From: Dryococelus australis
Lineage: Eukaryota > Arthropoda > Insecta > Phasmatodea > Phasmatidae
DNA length: 64,000 nt
Reading direction: 5' to 3'
Assembly: GCA_029891345.1 (NCBI GenBank)
Contig: CM056993.1
Coordinates: 109,049,800 to 109,113,799 of the forward strand
The notes below the pieces were generated by a model. That model saw only the letters and a list, made by a program, of their open reading frames with translations, did not search any database and was not told the origin of the DNA. The translations under genes and the position numbers were made by a program. This document shows, in pieces, positions 5,589-62,317 of the stretch. How positions within the stretch are numbered: the stretch's first letter is position 1; every line of letters begins with the position of its first letter.

Positions 5589-5590
5589 TA

Positions 5591-5984
5591 AAGGCTGTTC
5601 ACGATAAAGTCAGCCCTTTAGAAATGAACCTTATCTATTTTAATGGACGCACTGAGTGACATTTTCCCGGTAAAATGGTAACGATGGATGGAAAGTAGTT
5701 CCATATCATAACGTCAAATAAAAAGTGTTAGGGAACCATTTGTGATAACTTAATTTTATTTATTTCGCTTTCTGTTTTTTAATGCATCGAAATGTGAAAA
5801 TGAGCCGATTTGTAAAGTATTTACTTTTTTAATAATTTCACAGTTTCATTTGACCAACGCATGAATAAAGTGATGAGGCCCATGACAATGTTAATTTTAC
5901 ATAAGGCGGAGGATTACGCAACGTGTATACAATAACATCTTAAGCAGGGCTTCCAAAAATGCTCATTTTACCGTGAACAGCCTA
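5591..5984. mobile_element. Family A MITE, copy 2
   Basis: 394 bp, flanked on both sides by TA (5589-5590 and 5985-5986). Left end AAGGCTGTTCACGA; right end ACCGTGAACAGCCTA. The orientation of the interior is opposite to copy 1. Confidence 0.88.
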
Positions 5985-6235
5985 TAACGACTATAATGTT
6001 ATTGATTTCTGATTTAAAAAAAAAGTCCCGCCGCTGTTACCAATTGTGTACATAAAATTATCGAGCTCGCAGCTCTAATTTCGCATTAGCTTTCGCGGCG
6101 TGGATAAATTATTAGTCTTTTAATGGCACGTAAAGTAATAGAACATTAAAAATGACAAAGAAATGTTTTTACTAACGAATATTTCTGAATCCAAACTTAT
6201 TATGAACTGGGTGGAATGGAGAGATTCTGGCGGTT

Positions 6236-7979: not shown

Positions 7980-8275
7980 TCTATTGTGTAAGGATTTTTA
8001 GGCTCGCGCTCGAAAAGACGAAGGATGATCTTCCCGCCAGCCAAGCGAACAAGAGCGTTGACGCACGCGTCGCCAAATTCTGCGAAGAAGCGTATGCTTC
8101 ACGCACGTGGATCGCGCGCGTCATTAAGCGCAAGGCGACGAAGTCTGGCCGCGCCTTTGTGACCTTCAGCGCCTCGACAATAGACTGAAGGTGAGATGGA
8201 CCGATTTTCGCCTCCTCGGCATGTCTCCAACATTTATTCACCCGTCACCAATACAACTACCAAAACCACATGATT
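7980..8275. repeat. GC-rich segment joined to dispersed repeat R3 (left part)
   Basis: 7980-8200 is locally GC-rich with no recognisable protein. From about 8215 the sequence (AACATTTATTCACCCGTCACC...) matches 11806 onward and 16664 onward. This third copy of repeat R3 is split by a family A element at 8277. Confidence 0.55.
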
Positions 8276-8276
8276 A

Positions 8277-8697
8277 TAGGTTGTTCACGGTAAAATGAGC
8301 ACTTTTGAAAGCCCTGATAAAGATCTACTTGTATGCACGTTGTGTATTCTTCCGCCTTATGCGAAATTATCATTGCCGTCACCTCGTCACTGTATCCATG
8401 CGTCGGTCATGTGAAACGGTGAAATTATTACTAAAGGAAATGTTTTGCAAATCTGCCCATTTTTACACTTCGATGCATAAAAAAACCCAAAATCGAAAGA
8501 AATAATTTTAAAAATACCACAAATGGTTACCTGAAACTATTTATTCGACGTTAAGATATGGAACTACTATCCATTCATCGTTACCAACTTCGCTGGGAGC
8601 ACGTCACTCAGTTCGCCCGTTAAAATATATGCAGGTAGGGATAATTACTTTTTTCTAAGGCTGATTTCAAAAAGCTCACTTTATCGTGAACAGCATT
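8277..8697. mobile_element. Family A MITE, copy 3, inside repeat R3
   Basis: 421 bp, ends TAGGTTGTTCACGG and TATCGTGAACAGCATT, with TA on both sides (8275-8276 and 8698-8699). Repeat R3 sequence continues to the right (compare 8700-8815 with 16740-16850), so the insertion split an older repeat. Confidence 0.85.
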
Positions 8698-8950
8698 TAA
8701 CAGAGATGGAAGGGTTTCTTTAAGTCTGAATTTTTCATCAGCCCCACCCTTTTCAATTAACAAAATATTTCGAACTTTAATATATTCTATTTCCATTAAA
8801 ACTAGGTTAGAGGAAGTCCCAGAGCACCTGCGAACATAAATAGTTCCTAGCCTCGACTTCTATCCACGTTGTTTTTGTTTTGATAGTGATTTTGATAAAA
8901 GAGCATTCGGAAAGTCTTTACTGCGCAGCTGGCATGCCCACCCTACCTAA
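8698..8950. repeat. Dispersed repeat R3 (right part)
   Basis: Continues repeat R3 after the family A insertion: the TTTAATATATTCTA... AGGTTAGAGG stretch aligns with 16800-16850 and 11935-11990. Non-coding. Confidence 0.5.
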
Positions 8951-12115: not shown

Positions 12116-12117
12116 TA

Positions 12118-12529
12118 TTCGCTGTTCACAGTAAAATGAGCACTTTCAAGAGCCCTGCTTAAGATCTACTTGTATGCACACTCTGTATTCTTCCCCCTTA
12201 TATAAAATTAATATTGCAATGGGCCACATCACTTTATACACGTGAAACTGAAATTATTAGAAAAGTAAATATTGTACAAATCAGCTCATTTTTACACTTC
12301 GATGCATAAAAAAAAAAAACAGAAAACCAAAGAAATAGTTTTAAGTTTTCACAAATGGTTACCTTACACTTTTTTTCGACGTTAAGATATGGAACTACTT
12401 TCCATCCATCATAACCAACTTTACTGGGCGAATTTCACTCAATGCGCCCATTTAAATTTATGCATGCAGGGGCAGTGATTTTTTTCTAAGGCTCATTTCT
12501 AAAGTGTTCATTTTATCGTGAACATCCTT
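12118..12529. mobile_element. Family A MITE, copy 4
   Basis: 412 bp bordered by TA on both sides (12116-12117 and 12530-12531). Ends are somewhat mutated (TTCGCTGTTCACAG and ATCGTGAACATCCTT). Interior as in copies 1 and 3. Confidence 0.83.
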
Positions 12530-12967
12530 TACTGGTATGTACCAGGAAGGCGAGTGGGGCGACACTGAATGTGCCCTACACTGGCTTTACTGAAAATCCT
12601 GTACTCACTCTACATTCACATGAACATAGCTCTATCAAATGTTTATTTGTCATATGAAGTAAATTTCAGTGACAACAATTGTTTACCAAAATAATGAAAA
12701 TCTTAATTATTCTCCTTATTTTAACGAGTTGAGTTGATGTCGCGTCTGATTTTTTAAATTAACTATTTGCGCCTATATTAGTGAGGTTTTATTTCGTTTC
12801 GCTGGCATAACTGGTTGACGACGTTTATATATTGTTCGTTGGTGAATGCTTCATGTAAATTTCGAAAAAAATACAATGGATAAAATAGGACAACAGAAAT
12901 ATAATCTACGGAATATCCTTTCTTTTACAACTTGGTGGCAAAAGGTACTACGTGCTTTGCCATTTTA

Positions 12968-20194: not shown

Positions 20195-20196
20195 TA

Positions 20197-20607
20197 AAGG
20201 CTTTTCACCATAAAGTGAGCACTTTCGAAATCAACCTTATAAAAAAGTTACTGTTCCTACCTGCATATATTTTAACGGCGCACTGAGTAACATGCGCCCA
20301 GTAAAGTTAGTCACGATGGAGACAAAGTAGTTCCATATAACTACGTCGAATAAAAAGTGTTAGGTTACCATTTGTGACGACTTAAATAATTATTTCGCTT
20401 TTTGGTTCTTTTAATGCATGAAAGTGTAAAATGAGCAGATTTGGAAAGTATTATTTTTTCTAATAATTTCACTGGGCCAAAGCATTAATAAAGTGATGAG
20501 GCCCATGATAATGTTAATTTTACATAAAGCGTAAGACTACACAACGTTCGTAAAAGTAGATCTGAAGCAGGGCTTTCAAATGTGCTTGTTTGACAGTGAA
20601 CAGCCTG
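20197..20607. mobile_element. Family A MITE, copy 5
   Basis: 411 bp bordered by TA (20195-20196 and 20608-20609). Ends AAGGCTTTTCACCA and CAGTGAACAGCCTG. Same interior orientation as copy 2. Confidence 0.85.
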
Positions 20608-20689
20608 TAGGAGAGATGAGGCTCTAGGCATGAGTGGTAACATCGCCCGTATCGCTCCCTCGCTTCTTAACCTTGGACGCACAGCTACA

Positions 20690-48270: not shown

Positions 48271-48759
48271 ACAAGGCGAGTATACAAAAGTTATACAAAA
48301 AAATTCTTGCTAGAAAATAACATGGTGCAAAATTTGTAGTAAAATTAAGAAATTAATTTAATTATGTGTCAGTAGACTTATTATAATGGATTTGGCACAA
48401 GGGACGGAGGGCCAGAGCATGAAGCTATTCATGCTCTGTCATTCCGGTACCCGACGCCCATTTTTCCTTAAAAATCCCCATCTTTTCCCTCAAATCGACC
48501 ATTTTCCCTCGAAATTTCCCTTTTTCATAAATATGTCCCTTTTCCCCTTAAAAGTTCCCGTTTTTCCCTCAAAGATCGCCGAGCCTTCCGCTTGCAGAAA
48601 TAAGCTTCAGAAAGGCAACTTTCGATCCGTCGGAAGTATTTGGTAAGCCCCGCTTCTCGAGGGCATAACATTGACGGCCATACTGGTTTTTTAGGCATAA
48701 GGTTACCAAATAGATAAATAGGGTCAAGAGTCCGGAGTCAGACCTAACCATCAGACATC
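48271..48759. other. Intron sequence; short TTTTCCCT-type repeats
   Basis: 48460-48580 has repeated (C/T)-rich words (CCCTTTTTC, CCCTCAAA) on the plus strand. No exon recognised. Confidence 0.4.
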
Positions 48760-49690
48760 TTGGTTGTAAGCCATCTTGTTTACCATGTTGGATGTACGTG
48801 ACCTTGATATTGAACTTTGACCTTGACATCAGTGACCTTTGAACTTGAACCCAAAAATTCCCAAAAAATTAAAAAAATACGAAAAATTAAAAAATCCCAA
48901 ATATCTATAAAAATTATTTAAAAGTTTATTTAAAAAATTACATAGATTTATATTTTTTTATGTTTGGGCTTAGAGGGAACGAGGGTATGCAATTTATAAA
49001 ACAAAGTGTAATGATGCCACCCAACCTGCATTGTGGACCCGGGTGACATTGACTTTAATCCTATAACCTTGACCTTGGATGACCTTGCAAAATTCTAAGA
49101 ACAATTAATCGAAATCTGATAAATTCATAACAGCCAGCGAGTATATTACATTTGTGGCTACTGCCGCTATCTTGGATGCAGGTGACGACCTTTGACTTTA
49201 AACATTTTATCTTTGACCTTGAATCCAAAAATTCTCAAAAAATATCAAAAATTCCAAAAATTATAATATTTATAAAAAGAATATTTAGAATGTAAAAATA
49301 TAAAATTAGAATAATTTTTAATTGTTGGGTTTAGAGAGAATGAGGGGCTGGAACCATCCAGCCACCATCTTATGACGTCACCCAACCACCATGTTGAACC
49401 CAGGTGACATATACTATGACCCATTACCTTGACCCTATAACCGGAACTTTGGATGACCTTGAAAACAAAAACTCGAGAAAAAATTTTGAAAATTGAATAA
49501 TTTCATAACAGTCAGCGAGCATATTACATTACTGACTACTACCACCATATTGGATCCAGGTGACCTTGACCTTCCACTTTAACCTATGACTTTTGACCTT
49601 GACCCCAAAAATACATCAAAACCACCAAAAATTTCTTAATAATGCATGAAAAATTATTTTTAAATATTATCAGAGATTATCTTTAAAACA
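48760..49690. repeat. Tandem array of about 360-bp units rich in TGACCT/AGGTCA
   Basis: Three related units begin near 48760 (partial), 48959 and 49321. Shared landmarks are GGGTTTAGAGAGAATGAGGG, CACCATGTTGGA, ATAACCTTGACC, GGATGACCTTG, TCATAACAGTCAGCGAG and GGTGACCTTGACC. Each unit contains several TGACCTT hexamers, the complement of the AGGTCA nuclear-receptor half-site. The last unit overlaps the outer end of the left arm of inverted repeat 2. Confidence 0.8.
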
Positions 49691-51725
49691 TTCTTTCAAA
49701 ACCTTACATTCCCGGAGGTTTCCCACAGCACAAATTCCAGCAGACGAGCGACCCCCCTCTAATCAATAACATTGTATTAACGTTGTCCTACCCTACCCAC
49801 TCGCCTTTGCTCATTATGTTGAATGCACTCGACTGACCAACATGTGAGATCTGAATGACCTTCACCTAGACCTCACATCTGCGACCTTAACACCATTCCC
49901 ATGACGTTAAATAACCTTATACCCAAAATTGAATTCTAACAAATTTGATAATATACGAAAAATTCCAAAAATATATTAAAGAATTAAATAGTTAACTAAA
50001 TATTTCCTTCATATAATTCATTTGATCAAAATCGCAATCCTTCCATCGATCAGCACCACACGCTCAATAATCAGTACAACACGCACCACAATCAGCACTT
50101 CACGCCCCCTCCCAATTAACACCGCAATTAGTACTGCAATCAGCACCGCAATTAGCAACATAATCAGCACTGCAATCTTTCCAACAATCTTTTAATCTTT
50201 CCTTCAATCTTTCAATCTTTCCATATAAGTCTTTCGCAATATCTACGTCAATATTTCGCGAACTTTCCATCAATATTTCAATCTTTCCATTAATCTTTCA
50301 ATCTTCCCATCAATCCTTCGCAATTTTTCCATCAATATTTCGCAATATTTCCGTCAATATTTAGCAATATTTCCATCAATCATCAATCCATATTCAATCC
50401 ATGGGTTTATCGTCTGTCTCCATCCATTCATATTAAAAAAAAAAAGATTCACCAGCTGACTCGAAATTTGTACTTGTCGACTTAATTAATGTTTTGTATG
50501 CAATCCGTTTTTTGTATGCAAATTCTTTACTATCAATCTGTATGCAGATATTTCCGTTAATAGTTAACTGCTCATTGCACCACTTTAAAGTGGTGCAAGA
50601 GAAAAGGATACGACACACAAAAATAAAGAAAAATATTTTATAATACTAATTTATTATTATTTTGTAAATACAATTCCAGAAGAAAGCAATTCATCACTTC
50701 ATGTGATCTAGCCCCTCCCCTTCAGTTCTCTAATGATTAAAGATATTTCAACAATATGGGAGAGATCCCCGCATTTTTGCAGGTCAATCAAATATCAGAG
50801 TCTATCAACAAGTTCATTAGGGTCTTCGGGAAATATGTAACGAGCGCTTTTGACATATTCTGCCTTCGTGTCGCTTGTTGCAGCAAATGTGGTGGAAGGG
50901 TGTGTCAGTGCATAGAGAAAATCGTCATCGTCTTTATCCAACACCGTCGTGAGTCATTATCATCACTGCTATCTTCATAATCATATTCACCTCCTTTTTC
51001 ATCTTCAATATCAAGTTAACTCTCCTTTGTAGGAGTCGCATGATCATTATCAGCATTTAAAGCCAAAGACAGCTTTATTGAAGTTCATCAATTTCATGTG
51101 AATGTCTTTCATCTGTACATTCCACACAAACCGACTCTACTGCATTCATTCCATCTTTAGCATTAACTGTCTCGTCACAATCGTCTGTGTAGTCAGTACC
51201 CACCGATGTAGCAGGGGATATGGACTGCATCACTTGCTGGCTCTCAAAAGTCGAATCGTTACAGTTCTTGACGTGGTTTTTTAATGTATCACCTTGCATA
51301 CACGTGTGTGACCAATGTATTGTCGTGACTCTTCCTCGTGCGAAAAGGACTCTTTGTACAGGTGATTCTTTCATGTCGACGAGCATTTCGATTGAAGGTA
51401 AAAACTCGATCGCAGAATTGACGCCGTCGGCAGAAAGGTAGCGATGATGAAGGTCGCGGCTCCATGTTCAAATAGGTCAAAGGCAGACCTTCGTATTCAC
51501 AATTCATATTCACTGTATAGCGAGAGAATGCTTCCAAATCGATGTTCACTTCACAGTGTCAGAACGTCAACTGTCATCTTTTCTATACAAATGTAGTTCT
51601 TTTAACAGTCAAGAGACTAGCTTGTGGTACAAAAGGATTTCAACCATACAATTTATGTGTAAAAATATATGGAACACTCTGAGAAAACCCACATACTTGT
51701 TCGTACCAGACGGAAAACACGCATA
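49350..51725. repeat. Left arm of large inverted repeat 2
   Basis: Pairs in inverted order with 52305-54545 and 56520-56762. Landmarks are GGAACCATCCAGCCACCAT (49355) with GGCTGGTTGGTTCC (56745), GAGGTTTCCCACAGCAC with 54400, CAATCTTTCC repeats (50150-50400) with GAAAGATTG repeats (53660-54060), CACTTTAAAGTGG (50580) with CAACTTTAAAGCGG (53437), the zinc-finger gene, and GTTTTCCGTC-GTATGTGGG near the centre. About 2.38 kb. Confidence 0.92.
50708..51549 (-). pseudogene. C2HC zinc-finger/acidic protein, left-arm copy
   Basis: Decayed copy of a gene also present in the right arm. The N-terminal piece (51549-51289) has a C2HC finger, QFCDRVFTFNRNARRHERIT then Cys64: Cys46-x12-His59-x4-Cys64. The first Cys (position 43) reads Arg here but Cys in the right-arm copy. 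The next piece (51386-51075) has GDTLKNHVKNC, probably a second partial finger, and a CVECTDERHSHEIDELQ segment. An acidic region and a C-terminal tract ending RELKG follow down to about 50708 with stops and frameshifts. No ATG is visible at the start, and the first codon shown is GTG. I do not recognise the family; DNA or RNA binding is inferred from the fingers. Confidence 0.6.
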
Positions 51726-52304
51726 TAATTATATATATACATAAATATAGAAATGCAAATTATTTTTAATATATTTTATACATAATTATATATAGGTATA
51801 TAAATATGTAAATAAAATTATTTTAAATTAATTATATACATTATTTACATATAAATAATGGAGTATGAAATTATTTTAATTTATTTCATACGTAATTATG
51901 TTTAGATATTTAAATATGTATTAATACAAATTACGAAAATAAAAATTATTTATAATTAATTTTATACATTAGGGCTATTATGTACGTATAAATATGGGAA
52001 TACAAAATTATTTCCAATTAATTTTATACATAATTACGTTTAGGTATATACATATCTAATTGAAAATTATTTTAAATTAATTTTATACATAATAATATAT
52101 AAATAGGGGAATATCAAATTATTTATAATTTATTTATACACTATTATGTATATGTATAGGTATATAAATATCTATAAAAAATTAATTAATTTTATACATA
52201 ATTATGTATATGTAAATATGGGAATATAAAATTATTTTATGTTTTTATATTTAAACGTACATGTGCCCACAAGCATATTTAAAAATCATATTATTACGTG
52301 AGTA
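51726..52304. repeat. AT-rich tandem repeat at the centre of inverted repeat 2
   Basis: Imperfect units of about 60-75 bp built from AAATTATTTTAAATTAATTT, TATACATAATTATGTA and GGTATATAAATATG, about eight in number. It separates the two arms by under 0.6 kb. Confidence 0.75.
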
Positions 52305-52499
52305 TCTTCGTGTTTTCTTCTGGGGCGAATGAGTATGTGAGTTTTCCCAGAGTTCTCCCATATTTTTCTACATATGCATCTTATAGTGGAAGTCCTTTTA
52401 TGGGCACAATCTAGGCTCTTTACTGTTTAAAAAAAACCCGCATTTATATAGAAAAAATGGCACTTGATGTTCTGACACCGTGAGGTGAACATCGATTTG

Positions 52500-53336
52500 G
52501 AGGCATTCTCTTGATATACAGTGAATATGAATTGTGAATACAAAGGTCTGGCTTTGACCTAATCGAACATGGATCCGCTACCTGCATCATCGTTGCCTGA
52601 TTGCCGACTGTGTCAATTCTGCGATCGAGTTTTTTACTACGGTCAAAATTCTTGATGAAATGAAAGAATCACCTGTACGAAGAGTCCTTTTCGCGTGAGG
52701 AATAATTACGACAATGGTCACACACAGTTTATGCAAGGTGATACGTTAAAGAACATCAATAACTGTAACGATTCGAATTTTTTGAGAGCCAGCTAATAAT
52801 GCCGTCCAATCCCTGCTACATCGGTGGGTACTATTACACAGACGATTGTGACGAGACAGTAATGCTAAAGATGGAATGAGTGCAGTAGAGTCGGGTTGTG
52901 TGGAATGTACACTTGCAAGATTGCAAGACTTTCACGTGAAATCTATGAACTTCAAAATAAGCTGCCGTTGGCTTTAAATACTGATGGTGAACATGCGAAC
53001 CCTACAAAGGAAAGTAAACTTAATACTGAGGATGAAACAGGAGGTGAAGATGATCATGAATATAGCATTGATGATAATGACTATGACGACGGTGTTGATG
53101 AAACCGATAACGATTTTCTCGATGCACTGACACACCCCTCCACCACATTTGCTGCTTCAAGCGGCATGAAGCAAGCAGAAGATGTCAAGAACGCTCGTTA
53201 CATATTTTCCGAAGATCCGAATGAACTTGATAGACTCAGAAATTTGATTGACTTGCAAAAAAGCGAGGATCTCTCATGCATTGTTGCAATATCTTCAATT
53301 ATTAGAGAACTGAAGGGGAAAGGTTATATGACATGA
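52500..53336 (+). pseudogene. C2HC zinc-finger/acidic protein, right-arm copy
   Basis: Mirror copy of 50708-51549. The 5' part (52500-52890) is broken by stops but keeps CRLCQFCDRVF, with the Cys lost in the left copy. The 3' part is open for 146 codons (52896-53336). It has an acidic tract rich in D/E (DETGGEDDHEYSIDDNDYDD), then FLDALTHPSTTFAASS, and a C-terminal EDPNELDRLRNLIDLQKSED segment with SIIRELKGKG. Comparison of the two copies shows shared codon order and different lesions, so both descend from one intact gene. Role unknown; acidic plus finger architecture suggests a chromatin- or nucleic-acid-associated protein. Confidence 0.6.
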
Positions 53337-53649
53337 TATGGTGAACTGCTTTTTCCTGAAATCGTAAATAAAATATAATAAATAAGTATTATAGTATTTT
53401 TTTCTTTTTTTTTTCTGCCGTATCCTATTTCCCTCGCAACTTTAAAGCGGTGCTATGAGCAATCGACTCACGGAAAGATCTGCATACAGAATGATAGTAA
53501 AGACTTTCCGTATAAAAAAACCGCATGAATTGTCGGATTGCATACAAAACATTAATTTGAACAAATTTGGGGACGGCTGGAGAATTTTTTTTTTTATTTT
53601 TTTTTTTATACTATGAATGGATAGAGACAGATGACCAACTCGTGGATTA

Positions 53650-54062
53650 AATGTTCATTGATGGAAATATTTTGAAAGATTGACGGAAAGATTGCCAAAG
53701 ATTGACGGAAAGATTGCGAAAGATTAATGGAAATAATGCGAAAGACTGATGGAAAGAATGTGAAAGATATATGGTAAAATTGCGAAATATTGATGGGAAG
53801 ATTGAAAGATTGATGGAAAGTTTACGAAAGATTGATGGGAAGATTGAAATATTAATGGAAAGTTTGCGAAAGAGTGATGGAAAGATTGCGGTGCTGATTG
53901 GAGTGCTTATTGTAGTACTGATTGCAGTGCTTATTGTGGTACATGTAGTGATGATTTTTTTGCATATGATGCTTATTGTGGCGTGTGTGGTGTTGCTTGT
54001 GGTGGGTGTGGTGCTGATTTATGGAAAGATTGCGAGATTAATCAAACGATTGATGAAAATAA
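53650..54062. repeat. GAAAGATTG(AT)GG short tandem repeats
   Basis: Words such as GAAAGATTGATGGAAAG recur every 20-30 bases, then GTGCTTATTGTAGTACTGATTG units. The same repeats appear in inverted orientation at 50040-50420 (CAATCTTTCC, CAGCACCGCAATTAG). They give an artificial 100-codon frame (53771-54073) with a hydrophobic VLIVVLIAVLIVV run that I do not believe is a gene. Confidence 0.75.
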
Positions 54063-54545
54063 TCATTAAATAATTTCTTAATATTTTTGGAATTTTTTGG
54101 AATTTATAAATATTTTTAGAATTTATTTTTTGGTGGAAGGTTATCCAAAGTCATGGGCACAGGGTGAATATCACAGATGTGAGGTTAAGGTGAAGGTCAT
54201 CCAGATTTAACATGTTGGTCGGAGTCGTCAGTGCCACTTAGGTGTCGAAAATGTAAGCAAATGACAAACGAAGAAACCCAATATGGCAGGTGGAGTGAAT
54301 TCGGCAGAATGAGCAAAGGTGGGTAGGTGTTGGCGCGGAATGTTAATACAATGTGATTGATTGGAGGGGGGTTTGTCGTTTGCAGGACGTGGTGCTGTGG
54401 GAGACCTCCGGATGTAAGTTTTTAAAAATCATATTAAAATGTAATTTATAATAAAATTATTTATTAATTGTTAAAATTCTTAAAAAAAATTTTGGGAGTT
54501 TTGATAAATTTTTGGGTTCAAGGTCAATGGTCACCAGGTTGTAAA

Positions 54546-56519
54546 GTCTGCTTCTTACATTATTTATGTTCACCAGGAAACTTTATTTTGATATGCAAAT
54601 CATGGATATAAGTTAAAGACTAATTATTTGCATATTATATTTGGCATAATTTAAATGTTTTTCTCAAACTACTGTTTATCGGAATATTCGTTTTACCAGT
54701 TGTGTTGTCATATGTAATAGTTTCTACCATTTATAATTTTATAAGTATTTCTGTTTTATTTGATTTGTTTTTGTTTACGTCACGTGGTCGTACTTTGGAA
54801 ACTATTTGCTAATGGTTATCAGGGGCAACGAGGTGACGTCAGCCTCGTTGGAGTAGCCGCCCCGTGATTGGTCGCTAAAGTAAGCGCCAGGTTAAGACTT
54901 AGTGGAGGATTTTTTGCCCATTTTGTCTTCTTCTGCCGTAAGGGGGACGCGACGTGTGTCGCGGGGCCCAGTAGAAATTTTTATTTTTGATAGGGGCATT
55001 GGTTGGAGTTCCGCTTAGTGATAGCAGACCGCCGGAGGATGAAGCTGGGACATAAAGACAGGAAGGGTTACGTCTGCTTGCGCTGCCTACACGTTTATTA
55101 GATTACTTTTAATTCGCTACCGTCGGGTGTCAGACTGGTACATAAGAGACTTTAAGCGCACGTACGCAGGTCCATGAACCTTAGTAGGGAAGGCATCAAG
55201 GACGAAGCAGAGAGGTCCTAGCATCGCAGAACTTCAGGATCCAGCAACTTTTAAGTATTGTGCGTGAGCTACACGAGATAAATCATTCTAAAGGCTGTTC
55301 ACGATAAAGTGAGCACTTTTGAAATCAACCTTATAAAAAGGTCACTGCTCCTACCTGCATATATTTTAACGGGCGCACTGAGTGAATGCGCCCAGTAAAG
55401 TTGGTCATAATGGAGAGGAAAGTAGTTCCATATCTTAACGTCGAATAAAAAGTGTTAGGCAACCATTTGTGATAACTTAAAATTAGTTCTGTTACTTTCT
55501 GTTTTTTTTTTTTTTTTTTATGCATTTAAGTGTAAGAATGAGCAGATTTTTAAAATGCTAGTTTTTATAATAATTTTACAGTTTCACTTGACCGACGCAT
55601 GAATAAAGCGATGAGGCCCATGCCAATGTTAATTTTACATAAGGTGGAAGAACACACAACGTGCGTACAAGGAGATCTTAAGCAGGGCTTTCAAAAGTGC
55701 TCACTTTATCGTGAACAGCCTATATTTGTAATAACTTCGTACGATGGCCAGAGATTAATGTTTATATAGAAGTTAGCCAACCACGCCATTTTGAGAAAGT
55801 GTATAATTAATTTTCAAGTATCCAAGTTTACGCAAACAATGAGGATACATGGTTTCATTCTTCCAATTAGCAATGGTGTGAGCTTTATGAATATAATAAA
55901 TGAAGAATTTTATTTGTGTGATCTTTAACATAACTGGCGTCAATCACTGGCCTAGGCTACATAGTTACGGTCACTTTAATGCACGCAACCTCAACACACT
56001 CTAAACATTTCTGCATCACAAATCTATTGAAATATGAATGTTATTGTGTCATCTCAAAGAATTCAAAACTTTTGTTCAGAATAATTCATGATTTCAATAA
56101 ACCGCAAATTGATACTTTTCCAAAACGAAATTGTCATTTCCAGTAGTAAACTTGTAGAGGTTTTTACTGTTTTCAGAGGAATATTTTGGTATGTTATGTC
56201 CTAACAGCTACTTCCAGATACTCTGTATCTCTCTCACTGGGTAAGTTTGGAGCAAGAGAATAATGAAACAACTGTTGCTGCCCTGCTGTGATCCAGATCA
56301 ATGGTACGTCCTCTGATATTGTAAGTGTTCTGTTAAGAGTTTGATATTACGTGTCACGACTACATTATATTCGTATATTACAAGGGAAGTTCTCAGTGTG
56401 CTGTTTCAACTACATATGCCAATGCCATACTTATGTCACAATTTGGTTCATTCAGCTCGCACCAATCACACCACACACATTCTATAATTTATGTAACATC
56501 TAACATACTACGAGAGTCG
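54546..56519. mobile_element. Insertion of about 2 kb in the right arm, with LTR/promoter-like part
   Basis: This DNA has no partner in the left arm. The first 750 bases include a perfect CRE (TGACGTCA, 54834-54841), an inverted CCAAT (ATTGG, 54867-54871) and a GC-rich transcribed-leader-like region to about 55285, reminiscent of an LTR or promoter. A family A element follows at 55291. No target duplication could be fixed, so it may be more than one insertion. Confidence 0.5.
55291..55722. mobile_element. Family A MITE, copy 6
   Basis: 432 bp, the longest copy because of a T run at 55502-55520. TA on both sides (55289-55290, 55723-55724). Well-preserved ends AAGGCTGTTCACGATAAAG and CTTTATCGTGAACAGCCTA. 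Confidence 0.93.
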
Positions 56520-56762
56520 TTACAAGGTTAAGGTCAAAGGTCAAGGTGACCTGGATCCAAGATGGAAGTAGTAGTCAGTTATGTAATATGCTCTTTGGAT
56601 GTTGAATTTGCCCAATTTTTACACATTTTTCTTGAGTTTTTGTTTCCAAGATCATCCAAGGTCACGGTTATAGAGTCAAGGTCATGGGACAAGTTCAAGG
56701 TCACCTGATTCAAACATGGTGGTTGAGTGATATCATAACATGGTGGCTGGTTGGTTCCAGTG
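56520..56762. repeat. Right arm of large inverted repeat 2, outer part
   Basis: Resumes the arm. GGTCAAGGTGACCTGGATCC, TAGTCAGT-ATGTAATATGCTC, CATCCAAGGTCACGG and CATGGTGGCTGGTTGGTTCC pair with 49350-49590. Similarity stops at about 56762. Confidence 0.85.
56525..56549 (+). promoter_or_regulatory. Cluster of AGGTCA half-sites including a perfect DR1
   Basis: Reads AGGTTA, AGGTCA, A, AGGTCA, AGGTGA. AGGTCAAAGGTCA at 56531-56543 is an exact direct repeat with one-base spacing, the site bound by HNF4- or RXR-type nuclear receptors. It is part of the transposon-like arm, so its use by the host is only a possibility. Confidence 0.6.
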
Positions 56763-57834: not shown

Positions 57835-58683
57835 TAGTCTATTCGTGGTTTCTTCACGCTTTTTAAATTTAACCTTTGTAAAAGCACCCCCATGTTTGAG
57901 GTGTTTGGTTGTTTCCTAAAAGCTATTCACGATAACGTGAGCACTTTTGAAATGAACCTTGCAAAAGAATTCCCTGCTCCTACCTGCATACATTTTAACG
58001 GACGCACTGGGTGACATGCATCCAGTAAAGTTGGTAACGGTGGAGAAAAGGTAGTTCCATATATTAACGTCGAAAAAAAGACTTAGGTAACCATACCAAA
58101 TAACTTAAATAATTTCTTTCGCATTCTGTTTTTTAATGCATATAAGTGTAAAAATTAGCCGCTTTGTAAAATAATTACTTATATAAAAATTTCAAAGTTT
58201 TACTTGACTGACACATGAATAAAGTGAAGAGGTCCGTGACAATTCTAATTTTACATAAGGTGGAAGATTACACAACGTGTAGACAAATAGTTTTTAAGCA
58301 GGGGTTTCAAAAGTTCCCATTTTACCGTGAACAGCCTATAGTTACGTTATGTATCGCAAGGGTTTTATTCTTGAGTTAACATTGACGTACTTAATTTTAT
58401 GGTAAAATTGAAATTTTATTCAATTTTATATATAAACTATAATATTTCAATTTTTATAATACGAATAAAAACGGCGAGAAAATAGGTGTTTTGGTAATGC
58501 CTAGTAAGCAATAGTTCTTCTGCAAAATATTTCTACACTATGTGCGCACGAATGCGGTGAGTTGCCTCACTCGTGTAACTTTCTAGACACAGTTAGGCTT
58601 AGTTTACATGAGGTGGAAGAATATCGGGTTAATAGAACTTTGGCAGGGCTTCAGAAAAGTGTGAAGTAACGGTGAATGGACTA
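57835..58683. mobile_element. Family B MITE, copy 4, interrupted by a family A element
   Basis: Outer ends TAGTCTATTCGTGG and GGTGAATGGACTA, with TA at 57833-57834 and 58684-58685. Removing the family A element (57919-58338 and one TA) restores TTTCCTAGTTACGTTATG, which matches TTTCCTAACTATGCCATG in family B copy 1. Confidence 0.9.
57919..58338. mobile_element. Family A MITE, copy 7, nested in family B
   Basis: 420 bp, TA at 57917-57918 and 58339-58340. Ends AAAGCTATTCACGA and CCGTGAACAGCCTA. Confidence 0.92.
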
Positions 58684-58893
58684 TAACTAGCTCTTGAGTG
58701 CACAAAGAATTCTAGAGTCTAGCTTGTCGCCAAATGAATACGCGAGATTTCCGGGTCTCTAATAATAACAATTAAAAAAAAAGTATTTGCAAAAAGTATA
58801 TAAATCCACGAAGGCATCCAAATTACTCCCTTAGCATGAGAACATTTGCTGTAATAATGAAATGTGAGGTGATAGTTATTGTCGGCGACTGAC

Positions 58894-59149
58894 CTGCACG
58901 TAGAATAAGGGCTTCCGGAGCAAGCTGATGGGGTAGCATTTGGCTAGGTGGCTCAGCGTGACTCCGTGGATGTCAAACATAATGACGCAGCCCTTGGACA
59001 GCGGGAACTCTGACAAGTATAAGTCGATGGCGATGAAGAATGCCTTCAGGGCGTCCACGAACACGAACTTGGAGGCGTCGTAGTTCGTGTACCGGAAGAC
59101 AGCCACGTCGTAGCCTTCAGGGGTGGGTCGCGGCACCACCATAAGCTCG
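58894..59149 (-). CDS. CRAL-TRIO lipid-binding protein, exon (N-terminal part of domain)
   Basis: A 256-bp exon preceded by the acceptor GTGCCGTTTCCAG and followed by the donor CAG|GTCAGT. It opens with one base completing a split codon, then ELMVVPRPTPEGYDVAVFRY, and continues through SKGCVIMFDIHGVTLSHLAK to LRKPLFYVQ. This is the first half of the CRAL-TRIO domain: the strand after the N-terminal helical lid, the G-x-x-x-x-DxxG-xxxxH core (FDIHGVTLSH), and the strand ending in YVQ. It joins in phase 0 to exon 47992-48102. The CRAL-TRIO N-terminal helical exon and start codon must lie farther right, and I did not find them in 59150-64000. Higher GC than its surroundings, as expected for an exon. 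Confidence 0.94.
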
Positions 59150-60988
59150 CTGGAAACGGCACGAGCACACCCTCAGAAGCTGCACACGTGATTTCAGCGA
59201 GCAATCATTCTATATACTAAAGGTGAAGGATCACTCAAGTATACACAGCTGATTCACGGCTATGAAAACCGTAAAGTGAGTATCAGGTAGAGTACGCACG
59301 TCGAAGGCGCAAAACAACTCCCCGATTTTCCAACACCGAGCTGTTTTTTTTTTTTTCTGTGTCAACGGCACTATAAAAATCGACGTGGACAGGATTTGAG
59401 AAAATAACACTGTTCATACAGTGTCTTTAACCAAGGCAGTGCAACTTGAACAAACCCTAGTTAGTCAACGCAGTGTCTTGAATACTAGGAAAAAAAACAT
59501 ACTGCCACTTTCAACCTAAAGTCATTATTAAGGGCGCCACCTACCTGAAACACAACGTGCGTTTCAGTGTGTTTGAAATCCGCATTTTTTTTTTAATACG
59601 AAACCACTGCACATATCCCCACTATACCATTGTACGAAAACAAAATTCATTTCAGAATAGGTACCTACTTATAATACTTCCAGTACATAACACAAATCAT
59701 AAATGCTATTCCCAAGCCCTCCAACATAGCTAAAGACGGAATTTTCAGTCCTGTATCTCATAATATACTGGTCGGAAACGTGCGAAGTTATTATAGGGAC
59801 CTGCATTGAACTATGCTCCAGAACTTCCACCAATAAAATGATAGGGTCACAGCTTGAAGTCCCATAGGTACACGCAGCACAACGGAAACACTGCACGACA
59901 GTTCAGCGCCTTGCGCGTTAGTCAGCCATCTGTCGGTTTTTTCTTCCGTCAATCGAAAGCGACTCACAACAGTCCGTCATTCGTTGATCCATCTGGCCAG
60001 ACAATGTTCAGTGCGACCACCCAACAACACGAACTTTCTCGCGCAGAAACAAATGTTTTTAATGAATGTCATAAATATATTTTCTTTCCCTAACATAATT
60101 TACCAGCATTTCATCTGAAAATCTACAAGTCGTCTTCAGCTCAATTCAAAGGTGAAACGTAAAAAAGTAAACAATTTCACTGCCTTGTGTGCCAAAAAGA
60201 AAAATATTCGGACAAATAAACAAGTAACTGTTTTCCGACAGCCATGTTCAAGAAACGATATTGCAAGGCGGTGGACCATCCGTCGGTCCGTCGAAAGTTG
60301 AAGTTTGAGATATATTTGACGGATTTACATATTAAAAAAAAGTTGCCCTGCGATTGGTTGAACATCAAGTGACCTACGGACGGACGGGCGACTGACAGAT
60401 AAAACGGATAGTTGTCAGTCCAGCTTAATGAAATGGTATACTTGCCGTTTATGCCTTAAATCGATAGAGATAAACGAGATATTTCGTTTGGCACCAAAAT
60501 TAACGCACCTGCGCATCGAAAGAGCGAGATATACTGCCCGGAAATTCTCGCCCACACCCAAAAATGCCGCCACTTGATGCCTCGCACAACCGCGGCACAA
60601 ACACCAGGTCATCATCGTATCGTAATCGTGTACCCGATCGAAGGAGATCACATTTATTTCAATAGCGAAATTATTCACGATGTAATAATGTTCGAATGGC
60701 TAACCCTGCAAACGTTACATTGCCGTTTCCGTCCTGGTGCCCCATGTGTCGGAATTATCCTACACTGTAAAAATGTTCTCGTAAACTTCCTAAACTGCAA
60801 TGAAAGTTTTTAACCTACACGCTGTATGGTAATAATACCACACATAAAGTTGCAGATATAGCAATGTTTAGCAGCGCTACTATACAAAGTTGGGAACTTC
60901 CCCAAATATTTGACTGTTTCCTGAGCAAATGTAGGAACGCTACAATCAATTTATAGGGGGAAACATTACCAATCCTGTTTTCTCACTA
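59150..60988. other. Upstream intron; no further exon recognised
   Basis: Contains a region (59935-60410) with ATCTGTCGGTTTTTTCTTCC at the left and an inverted-looking GACTGACAGAT at the right, possibly a degraded small element, but the match is short. Open frames here have no domain. Confidence 0.4.
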
Positions 60989-61407
60989 TAAGCTGTACAC
61001 GGTAAAGTGAGCACTTCTGACAGCCCTGTTTAAGATCTACTTGTATGCACGTTGTGTATTCTTCCGCCTTATGTAAAATTAACATTGCCATGCGCCTCAT
61101 CACTTTGTTCATGCATCGGTCAAATGATACTGTGCAGTTTTTAGAAAAATAAATATGTCACAAATCTGCACATTTTTCACTTCGGAGTATGAAATAAAAC
61201 AGAAAGCGAAAGACATAATTAGAGTTTTCACTAACGGTTAGCGAACAACAATTTTAATTCGATGTTATCACATGGAACTACTCCATCGTTATCAACATTA
61301 CTAGCTGAATGTCACTCAGTGTGCCCCATTAAAATATATGTACGTAGGAGCAGTGACTTTTTTCTAAGGTTGATTTAAAAAGTGTTCACTTTATCGTGAA
61401 CAGCCGT
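60989..61407. mobile_element. Family A MITE, copy 8
   Basis: 419 bp, TA at 60987-60988 and 61408-61409. Ends TAAGCTGTACACGG and ATCGTGAACAGCCGT. Interior orientation as copies 1, 3 and 4. Confidence 0.9.
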
Positions 61408-62317
61408 TAAGCATATATACTGGTGTAGTAAATTTCCGAATTATTTCTTAGAGTGTATACACGTCAATACAGGCTGCCACGTTATTACTGTAAACTGAAA
61501 TGTTTTTCGTGATCGCTATAAATATGAATTATTATACCTAAATGAATAGAAAAGTTTGCCTTGGCGTTAACACTCTCAGGCGCATGGTTCTCAAGAAAAC
61601 AACTGCGAAGTTTAAGACGGTGGATTTTTTCCTGCCAGCTAGGCAACCTGTGAGGCAGCGTTTTATTATCTTGATTAAAGAAAATCGTTTGTCCATAAAA
61701 CTATTAGAAAAGTTAGATTTCAATTTAATGGTTCGCTATTCTAAACTCAAAATATGTTGTTTCATTACAAGTAGTTTCTAACTGGATTAAATTATAAATA
61801 TCTTGTAAATAATGATTTTTAATGCACGTACTACTATTAATAATAATTGTAAGTTATGAGTCGTTTTTATGTTTTATTTCTTATTTTCAATAAAGAATTA
61901 TATCACTCAGTTTTCACCTGGCGATAAGAATAACCATGAATATTACGTTACTGGCTAAAACACATATTAAAATTAATTTGTTTCAGATATCATTAGGGGC
62001 GCCTGTCTTTTACGACTCTATTCCACAGCTAGTTGAACATCAAAATACTAGTTGATAACCACGTCGTGATTGGATGATGTGTCACGCTTCCTAGATGTGT
62101 CTGCTCACGAATCACGGACGTTCGGTATCGGAGCAACTTAATTCTCATTGGCCCAGTCAGATAACAAAAGTTTTCTCACGGATACAATCGGCCGTTCGGC
62201 GAATGACCAAAATCAGGAAAATTAAATATTGTGATAAATTTTAAATGCGAGTTATTTAGTTCAGTCATTCTATCTGTATTGCTGTGTAAGTTCAACAGCT
62301 AGTTGGGTAAGAAGGTT

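What the first reader, a model, noticed from the sequence alone, without database searches (positions are those of the whole stretch)
48760..56762. 8-kb palindromic element carrying the same zinc-finger gene in both arms
Seen: the left arm (49350-51725) and right arm (52305-54545 plus 56520-56762) mirror each other around an AT-rich centre. Each has a decayed copy of one gene: a C2HC finger, a GDTLKNHVKNC segment, an acidic tract and a DPNEL...RELKG tail. The lesions differ between copies. I do not recognise this protein family. A mobile element whose terminal repeats contain its own gene would be unusual and possibly undescribed.
Basis: partly seen in the sequence, partly recalled or inferred. 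Interest (0 to 1): 0.85.

Follow-up and report, generated by a model that had tools for sequence, protein, structure and literature searches.

The report
Palindromic Maverick-like element with doubled gene
This stretch is an old, broken copy of an abundant jumping element that is almost a mirror image of itself, carries the same zinc-finger-like gene in both halves, and has the ends of the virus-like Maverick transposons without any recognised gene for moving itself.

Summary
The palindrome is real: left arm 48371-51729, AT-rich centre, right arm 52300-54547 plus 56525-56761; 1,865 of 2,299 aligned bases agree, and each arm holds a decayed copy of one gene. The host genome (3.4 Gb) holds at least hundreds, probably thousands, of relatives. 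It is a mobile family: in 5 of 7 palindromes tested the two arms are sister; two separate loci share an unpaired centre; of 6 elements whose two flanks could be read, 4 have exact 6-bp target duplications (others 5/6 and 4/6). A sister subfamily ends in ACTACT (8 of 14 copies exactly, 4 more one base off), which is the published vertebrate Maverick end motif 5'-(AGT)2//(ACT)2-3'; the window copy starts AGTAGA. Matched ends lie 2.8-8.7 kb apart. No polymerase, integrase or capsid gene was recognised in the two copies scanned. The same genome has an AGT-ended family with end pairs of 15.6-19.1 kb; one copy holds polymerase-B-like frames. Best reading: a non-autonomous, Maverick-ended foldback element, moved in trans, whose long arms carry a finger/acidic protein gene. 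Snap-back origin is inferred. The gene's function, its place in a full Maverick and selection on it are not shown.

The parts
48371..51729 (-). Left inverted arm; 5' end AGTAGACTTATT at 48371 (gene reads leftward)
   Evidence: Arm alignment; end shared with C2-207 and C2-255 loci
48785..49633 (.). Two ~384-bp sub-repeats rich in GTGACC in the outer left arm
   Evidence: Self-BLAST, 68%
50172..50384 (.). Short tandem repeats (minisatellite) of the left arm
   Evidence: Repeat finder
50699..51558 (-). Left copy of the gene, decayed
51730..52299 (.). AT-rich centre with tandem repeats
52300..54547 (+). Right inverted arm, inner part
52476..53336 (+). Right copy of the gene; open for 155 codons at 52869-53333
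53650..53890 (.). Minisatellite of the right arm, mostly 22-bp spacing
54541..56524 (.). Later insertion in the right arm, between AGGTT copies (54536-54540 and 56525-56529); not part of the element
56525..56761 (+). Right arm, outer part, truncated at 56761
   Evidence: 81% to 49348-49585

Best explanation
The window holds an old, decayed copy of an abundant non-autonomous element: a foldback palindrome with Maverick-type ends and a finger-like/acidic protein gene in each long inverted arm. Shown: palindromic unit, shared ends, 6-bp target duplications, end motif, high copy number, no core Maverick gene recognised in the two copies scanned, and an AGT-ended family of Maverick size in the same genome. 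Inferred: (1) it is integrated by a Maverick-type integrase and copied by a Maverick protein-primed polymerase B, both supplied in trans; (2) it arose when one Maverick end, with an accessory gene near it, was copied back on itself (snap-back during strand-displacement replication), giving a palindrome with a working end on both sides; (3) the protein binds DNA, possibly the short tandem repeats in the same arm, and acts as a regulator or end-binding factor.
For: Palindrome and gene in both arms. Arms of one palindrome are sister in a 47-copy tree in 5 of 7 cases. C4-180 and C9-24 centres align, 65.6% over 932 columns. Of 14 aligned subfamily-ii ends 8 read ACTACT, 4 differ at one base, 2 do not show it. 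End patterns: 50 sites, 0 control; 636 sites, 15 control, 6 facing pairs 2,816-8,651 bp among the 100 listed. Target duplications: TTTGAT and CACCAC, TGCTGG, AGTAAA exact; GTTGGT/GTCGGT 5/6; TCCGCC/TCCGTT 4/6. Published Maverick ends and 6-bp duplications (PMC8097293). Second AGT-ended family: 217 sites, 1 control, pairs 19,139, 17,694, 15,626, 6,686 and 391 bp among 100 listed (recounted). DNA_pol_B_2 in the genome (54 matches from 91 scored), one of them 625 bp upstream of a relative of the C17-75 frame.
Against: No gene-bearing palindrome was seen inside, or derived from, a full-length Maverick; the helper is inferred. The window copy has one end only, AGTAGA rather than AGTAGT, and no testable duplication; the only element of its own type with both ends has 4/6. 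Arms of C17-75 and C1-313 are not sister, and in C4-180 and C6-90 some comparisons with other copies (8 and 2) are as close as arm to arm. C15-72 has microsatellites at both ends and no readable motif. The polymerase-bearing copy in C17-75 shows no clear target duplication and its left end reads AGCAGTA. One polymerase frame lies inside and one outside the listed ends on C1-C3 within 25 kb, 0.18 expected inside: not informative. Selection on the gene is not significant (Fisher p = 0.14). Pfam did not call the C17-75 polymerase frames.
Confidence: 0.68

Rival explanations
1. A Maverick lineage with unusually long terminal repeats in which the gene is a normal TIR-borne gene; the palindromes are simple internal deletions of it.
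For: Sister arms, a shared centre, Maverick-type ends. C2-58 has a gene-bearing left arm with an AGTAGT start and another gene hit 19 kb away.
Against: No full-length copy seen. No right arm near C2-58 among the 40 scored hits. The six facing end pairs listed are 2.8-8.7 kb, none of Maverick size. The C17-75 polymerase element has 1.8-kb repeats without the gene.
Confidence: 0.3
2. An unrelated DNA transposon with 6-bp duplications whose own transposase is the finger protein.
For: The gene is the only recurrent one found; the family is mobile.
Against: No catalytic domain by Pfam in the frames scanned; the ends match the Maverick motif.
Confidence: 0.1
3. A host gene caught in a one-off segmental inversion, or an assembly artefact.
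For: The window copy is decayed and truncated on one side.
Against: 150 of 150 scored protein hits match, the weakest at E 4.5e-32; palindromes on several chromosomes; shared ends and target duplications.
Confidence: 0.02

Closest known systems
Maverick/Polinton elements
   Same: 5'-(AGT)2//(ACT)2-3' ends and 6-bp target duplications (PMC8097293, passages and section 7 read; here)
   Different: Published vertebrate ones are 12.7-24.6 kb with eight core genes and TIRs of 46-1,447 bp; here ends 2.8-8.7 kb apart, arms of 2.4 kb or more with a gene in each, no core gene recognised
Foldback-type elements such as Drosophila FB, Galileo and Tetris (PMC4079207 and PMC3573991 seen as search listings with the start of the abstract only; FB recalled)
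   Same: Long inverted arms with internal tandem repeats and a short centre
   Different: Target duplication is 6 bp here (those families: 7-9 bp, recalled); Maverick-type ends; a gene inside both arms
Palindromic defective genomes of protein-primed linear viruses such as adenovirus (recalled; Daniell 1976 seen only as a reference in passages of PMC12090768)
   Same: One genome end duplicated in inverted orientation, dependent on a helper: the proposed way of origin
   Different: Those are replication by-products; this is a family integrated in many copies in an animal genome

Membership tests
Maverick/Polinton | 6-bp target duplication | tested here: met
   4 of 6 readable elements exact, 5/6 and 4/6 in the others; not testable for the window copy, which has one end
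Maverick/Polinton | (AGT)2//(ACT)2 or related end motif | tested here: met
   8 of 14 subfamily-ii ends exact, 4 one base off, 2 not; window copy AGTAGA
Maverick/Polinton | Full size, about 13-25 kb | tested here: not met
   Six facing end pairs of 2,816-8,651 bp among 100 of 636 sites listed; C4-180 about 6.8 kb
Maverick/Polinton | Polymerase B, integrase, ATPase, protease and capsid genes | tested here: not met
   No Pfam match above cut-off in 10 frames of the C9-24 copy or 13 window frames; centres examined are about 0.7 kb or less unless other repeats sit in them; not all frames were scanned
Foldback/Galileo type | Long inverted arms with internal tandem repeats | tested here: met
Foldback/Galileo type | 7-9 bp target duplication (recalled) | tested here: not met
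   Duplications are 6 bp
Foldback/Galileo type | P- or Mutator-like transposase in complete members (recalled) | tested here: inconclusive
   No transposase domain in the frames scanned, but these copies may be non-autonomous

The most novel reading that the evidence does not exclude
A satellite of Mavericks: a palindromic element born by snap-back copying of one Maverick end, which kept that end's finger-protein gene in both arms, borrows the replication and integration machinery of full Mavericks, and has spread to thousands of copies in one animal genome, as defective viral genomes or virophages parasitise their helpers.
Probability: 0.35. Interest if true: 0.78.

Novelty: new variant of a known kind. 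Interest (0 to 1): 0.62.

Why it matters
Mavericks are usually described as large self-sufficient elements. A high-copy, gene-bearing palindromic derivative with Maverick ends would mean that they have small parasites of their own. It would give many natural junctions for studying how their ends are recognised, and make it testable whether protein-primed replication creates heritable palindromes in animal genomes. Searches that might have named such an element: non-autonomous or foldback Polinton phrases (0 papers); foldback plus zinc finger (3 papers); Maverick, Polinton, cockroach (58 papers, 20 listed); defective or palindromic Mavericks (14 papers, 12 listed); foldbacks with 6-bp targets (7 papers). 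No title or abstract beginning in these listings names one; the papers themselves were not read for this, and subscription journals are mostly not held.

Tried and rejected
Host gene or single inversion: rejected by copy number, ends and duplications. An intron in the B-subfamily gene: first thought likely from L046, then dropped, because the extra stretch itself reads as further finger-like coding sequence in pieces. C17-75 as a 36-kb intact element with the gene in both arms: not accepted, because the space between holds a second pair of inverted repeats with polymerase-like frames and a stretch that reads by eye like mitochondrial DNA, and the outer arms are not sister. C2-58 as a gene-bearing Maverick of about 21 kb: not supported (40 scored). 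Relatives of the protein outside this genome: none in viral contigs or prokaryote genomes, none significant in PDB (best E 0.58); no eukaryote protein collection was available. Structure prediction of the 155-aa frame: mean pLDDT 45, not usable, so no fold search was run. Selection: nearly equal change at the three codon positions inside subfamily A (0.229, 0.197, 0.208); between A and B majority differences 9/138, 12/137, 16/131, p = 0.14: inconclusive. Linkage of polymerase frames to AGT ends: one inside, one outside, 0.18 expected inside: not informative.

Full report
What was checked. Aligned outward from the centre, 1,865 of 2,299 bases match. Each arm has, from the inside out: an AT-rich inner stretch, the gene (reading outward), a short 3' region, a minisatellite (mostly 22-bp spacing on the right) and an outer block rich in GTGACC. 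The left arm goes on through ~384-bp sub-repeats to 48371, where homology with two other loci stops at 5'-AGTAGA. The right arm was split by an insertion at 54541-56524 and lost its outer end.

The gene. In the window the right copy is open for 155 codons. Across 43 other copies that frame has far fewer stops than the other frames, but the middle stretch 52716-52904 favours no frame, so the older reading frame there is unsure. The product has finger-like CxxC...HxxxxC stretches, a coiled and lysine-rich part, an acidic tract and a tail EDPNELVDRLR...EISSIIxELKxRGY (the finger reading is by eye). Pfam, PDB, viral and prokaryote searches gave no relative. Divergence inside subfamily A is nearly equal over codon positions, as expected of decaying copies; the signal for selection between subfamilies is not significant.

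It is mobile. The DNA search scored 40 of 12,639 first-look candidates, the protein search 150 of 12,861; all 150 match, the weakest at E 4.5e-32. The true number is not known; at least hundreds, probably thousands. In one search, 36 loci include 8 with both strands, 7 of them outward and one convergent, 38 loci include 10, all outward (recounted). These are lower bounds: C15-72 appears on one strand only and is a palindrome when read. In a tree of 47 gene copies the two arms of a palindrome are sister in 5 of 7 cases (window, C4-180, C6-90, C2-253, C15-72; not C17-75, C1-313). C4-180 and C9-24 share an unpaired centre in the same orientation (65.6% over 932 columns), so a palindrome with its centre moved as one unit. 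L046 is a palindrome with a loop of about 13 bases, so centres vary.

Ends. Of 14 aligned ends of subfamily ii, 8 read ACTACT, 4 differ at one base and 2 do not show it. A 26-base end pattern found 50 sites and no control site, a 22-base one 636 against 15. Facing end pairs among the 100 listed places give 2,816, 3,072, 3,757, 4,516, 5,559 and 8,651 bp. Six elements could be read on both flanks: C4-180 TTTGAT, C9-24 CACCAC, C15-40 TGCTGG and C17-141 AGTAAA exact; C7-112 GTTGGT/GTCGGT; C2-207 TCCGCC/TCCGTT. The gene is confirmed inside C4-180, C9-24, C15-40 and C2-207; C7-112 and C17-141 were not examined for it. The window subfamily is tied to subfamily ii by gene, arm plan and the AGTA start, and by C2-207, the one element of its type with both ends.

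Maverick link. PMC8097293 (passages and section 7 read) reports 5'-(AGT)2//(ACT)2-3' ends, 6-bp duplications, sizes of 12.7-24.6 kb and TIRs of 46-1,447 bp for vertebrate Mavericks. Ends and duplications fit; size and gene content do not. The same genome has a second AGT-ended family (217 sites, 1 control; pairs of 19.1, 17.7, 15.6, 6.7 and 0.4 kb among 100 listed). Its copy inside C17-75 holds frames that look like polymerase B (motifs recalled; 1.8-kb inverted repeats), though its left end reads AGCAGTA and no clear duplication is seen. Pfam did not call those frames, but at C17:42.5 Mb a relative of one lies 625 bp downstream of a DNA_pol_B_2 match on the same strand. Whether polymerase frames lie inside the listed end pairs is not shown: one lies inside a listed end, one outside.

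How it probably works. The palindromes carry ends but no recognised machinery, so integration and copying are most simply supplied in trans by Mavericks. A palindrome with the same terminal gene on both sides is what copy-back of one end during protein-primed strand displacement would give. This is inference; the rival, internal deletion of a Maverick with long gene-bearing TIRs, stays open at about 0.3. The protein may bind the repeats of its own arm; this is untested. The window copy itself is a fossil: both gene copies are broken or incomplete and one end is lost.

Host. 

Noticed in passing
window 55288-55728 and 1582-2002, 5589-5986, 8275-8699, 12116-12531, 20195-20609, 57916-58343, 60987-61428: A dispersed ~440-bp repeat, 8 copies in the window at 77-81% identity, with 36-base inverted ends (97%): MITE-like.
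   Followed up: partly
window 58876-59172 (-): A frame with a weak CRAL-TRIO match (E 0.0036, 17.6 bits, below the cut-off of 22.6), perhaps a host exon.
   Followed up: no
L011:1920-4880 (C17:75441920-75444880): Frames that read by eye like insect mitochondrial genes, i.e. a possible nuclear copy of mitochondrial DNA inside the C17-75 locus; not tested.
   Followed up: no
L012:3305-7131 (C17:75453305-75457131): Polymerase-B-like frames in a copy flanked by 1.8-kb inverted repeats; relatives number 150 of 150 scored (first look 11,829 and 11,497), so Maverick-like polymerases are abundant in this genome.
   Followed up: partly
L046, L054: Subfamily B of the gene has extra finger-like coding stretches between the two halves that are contiguous in the window type.
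   Followed up: partly
L015:1070-1932 (C2:253847070-253847932): Frames resembling a hAT-type transposase by eye inside the centre of another palindrome; Pfam did not confirm it.
   Followed up: no
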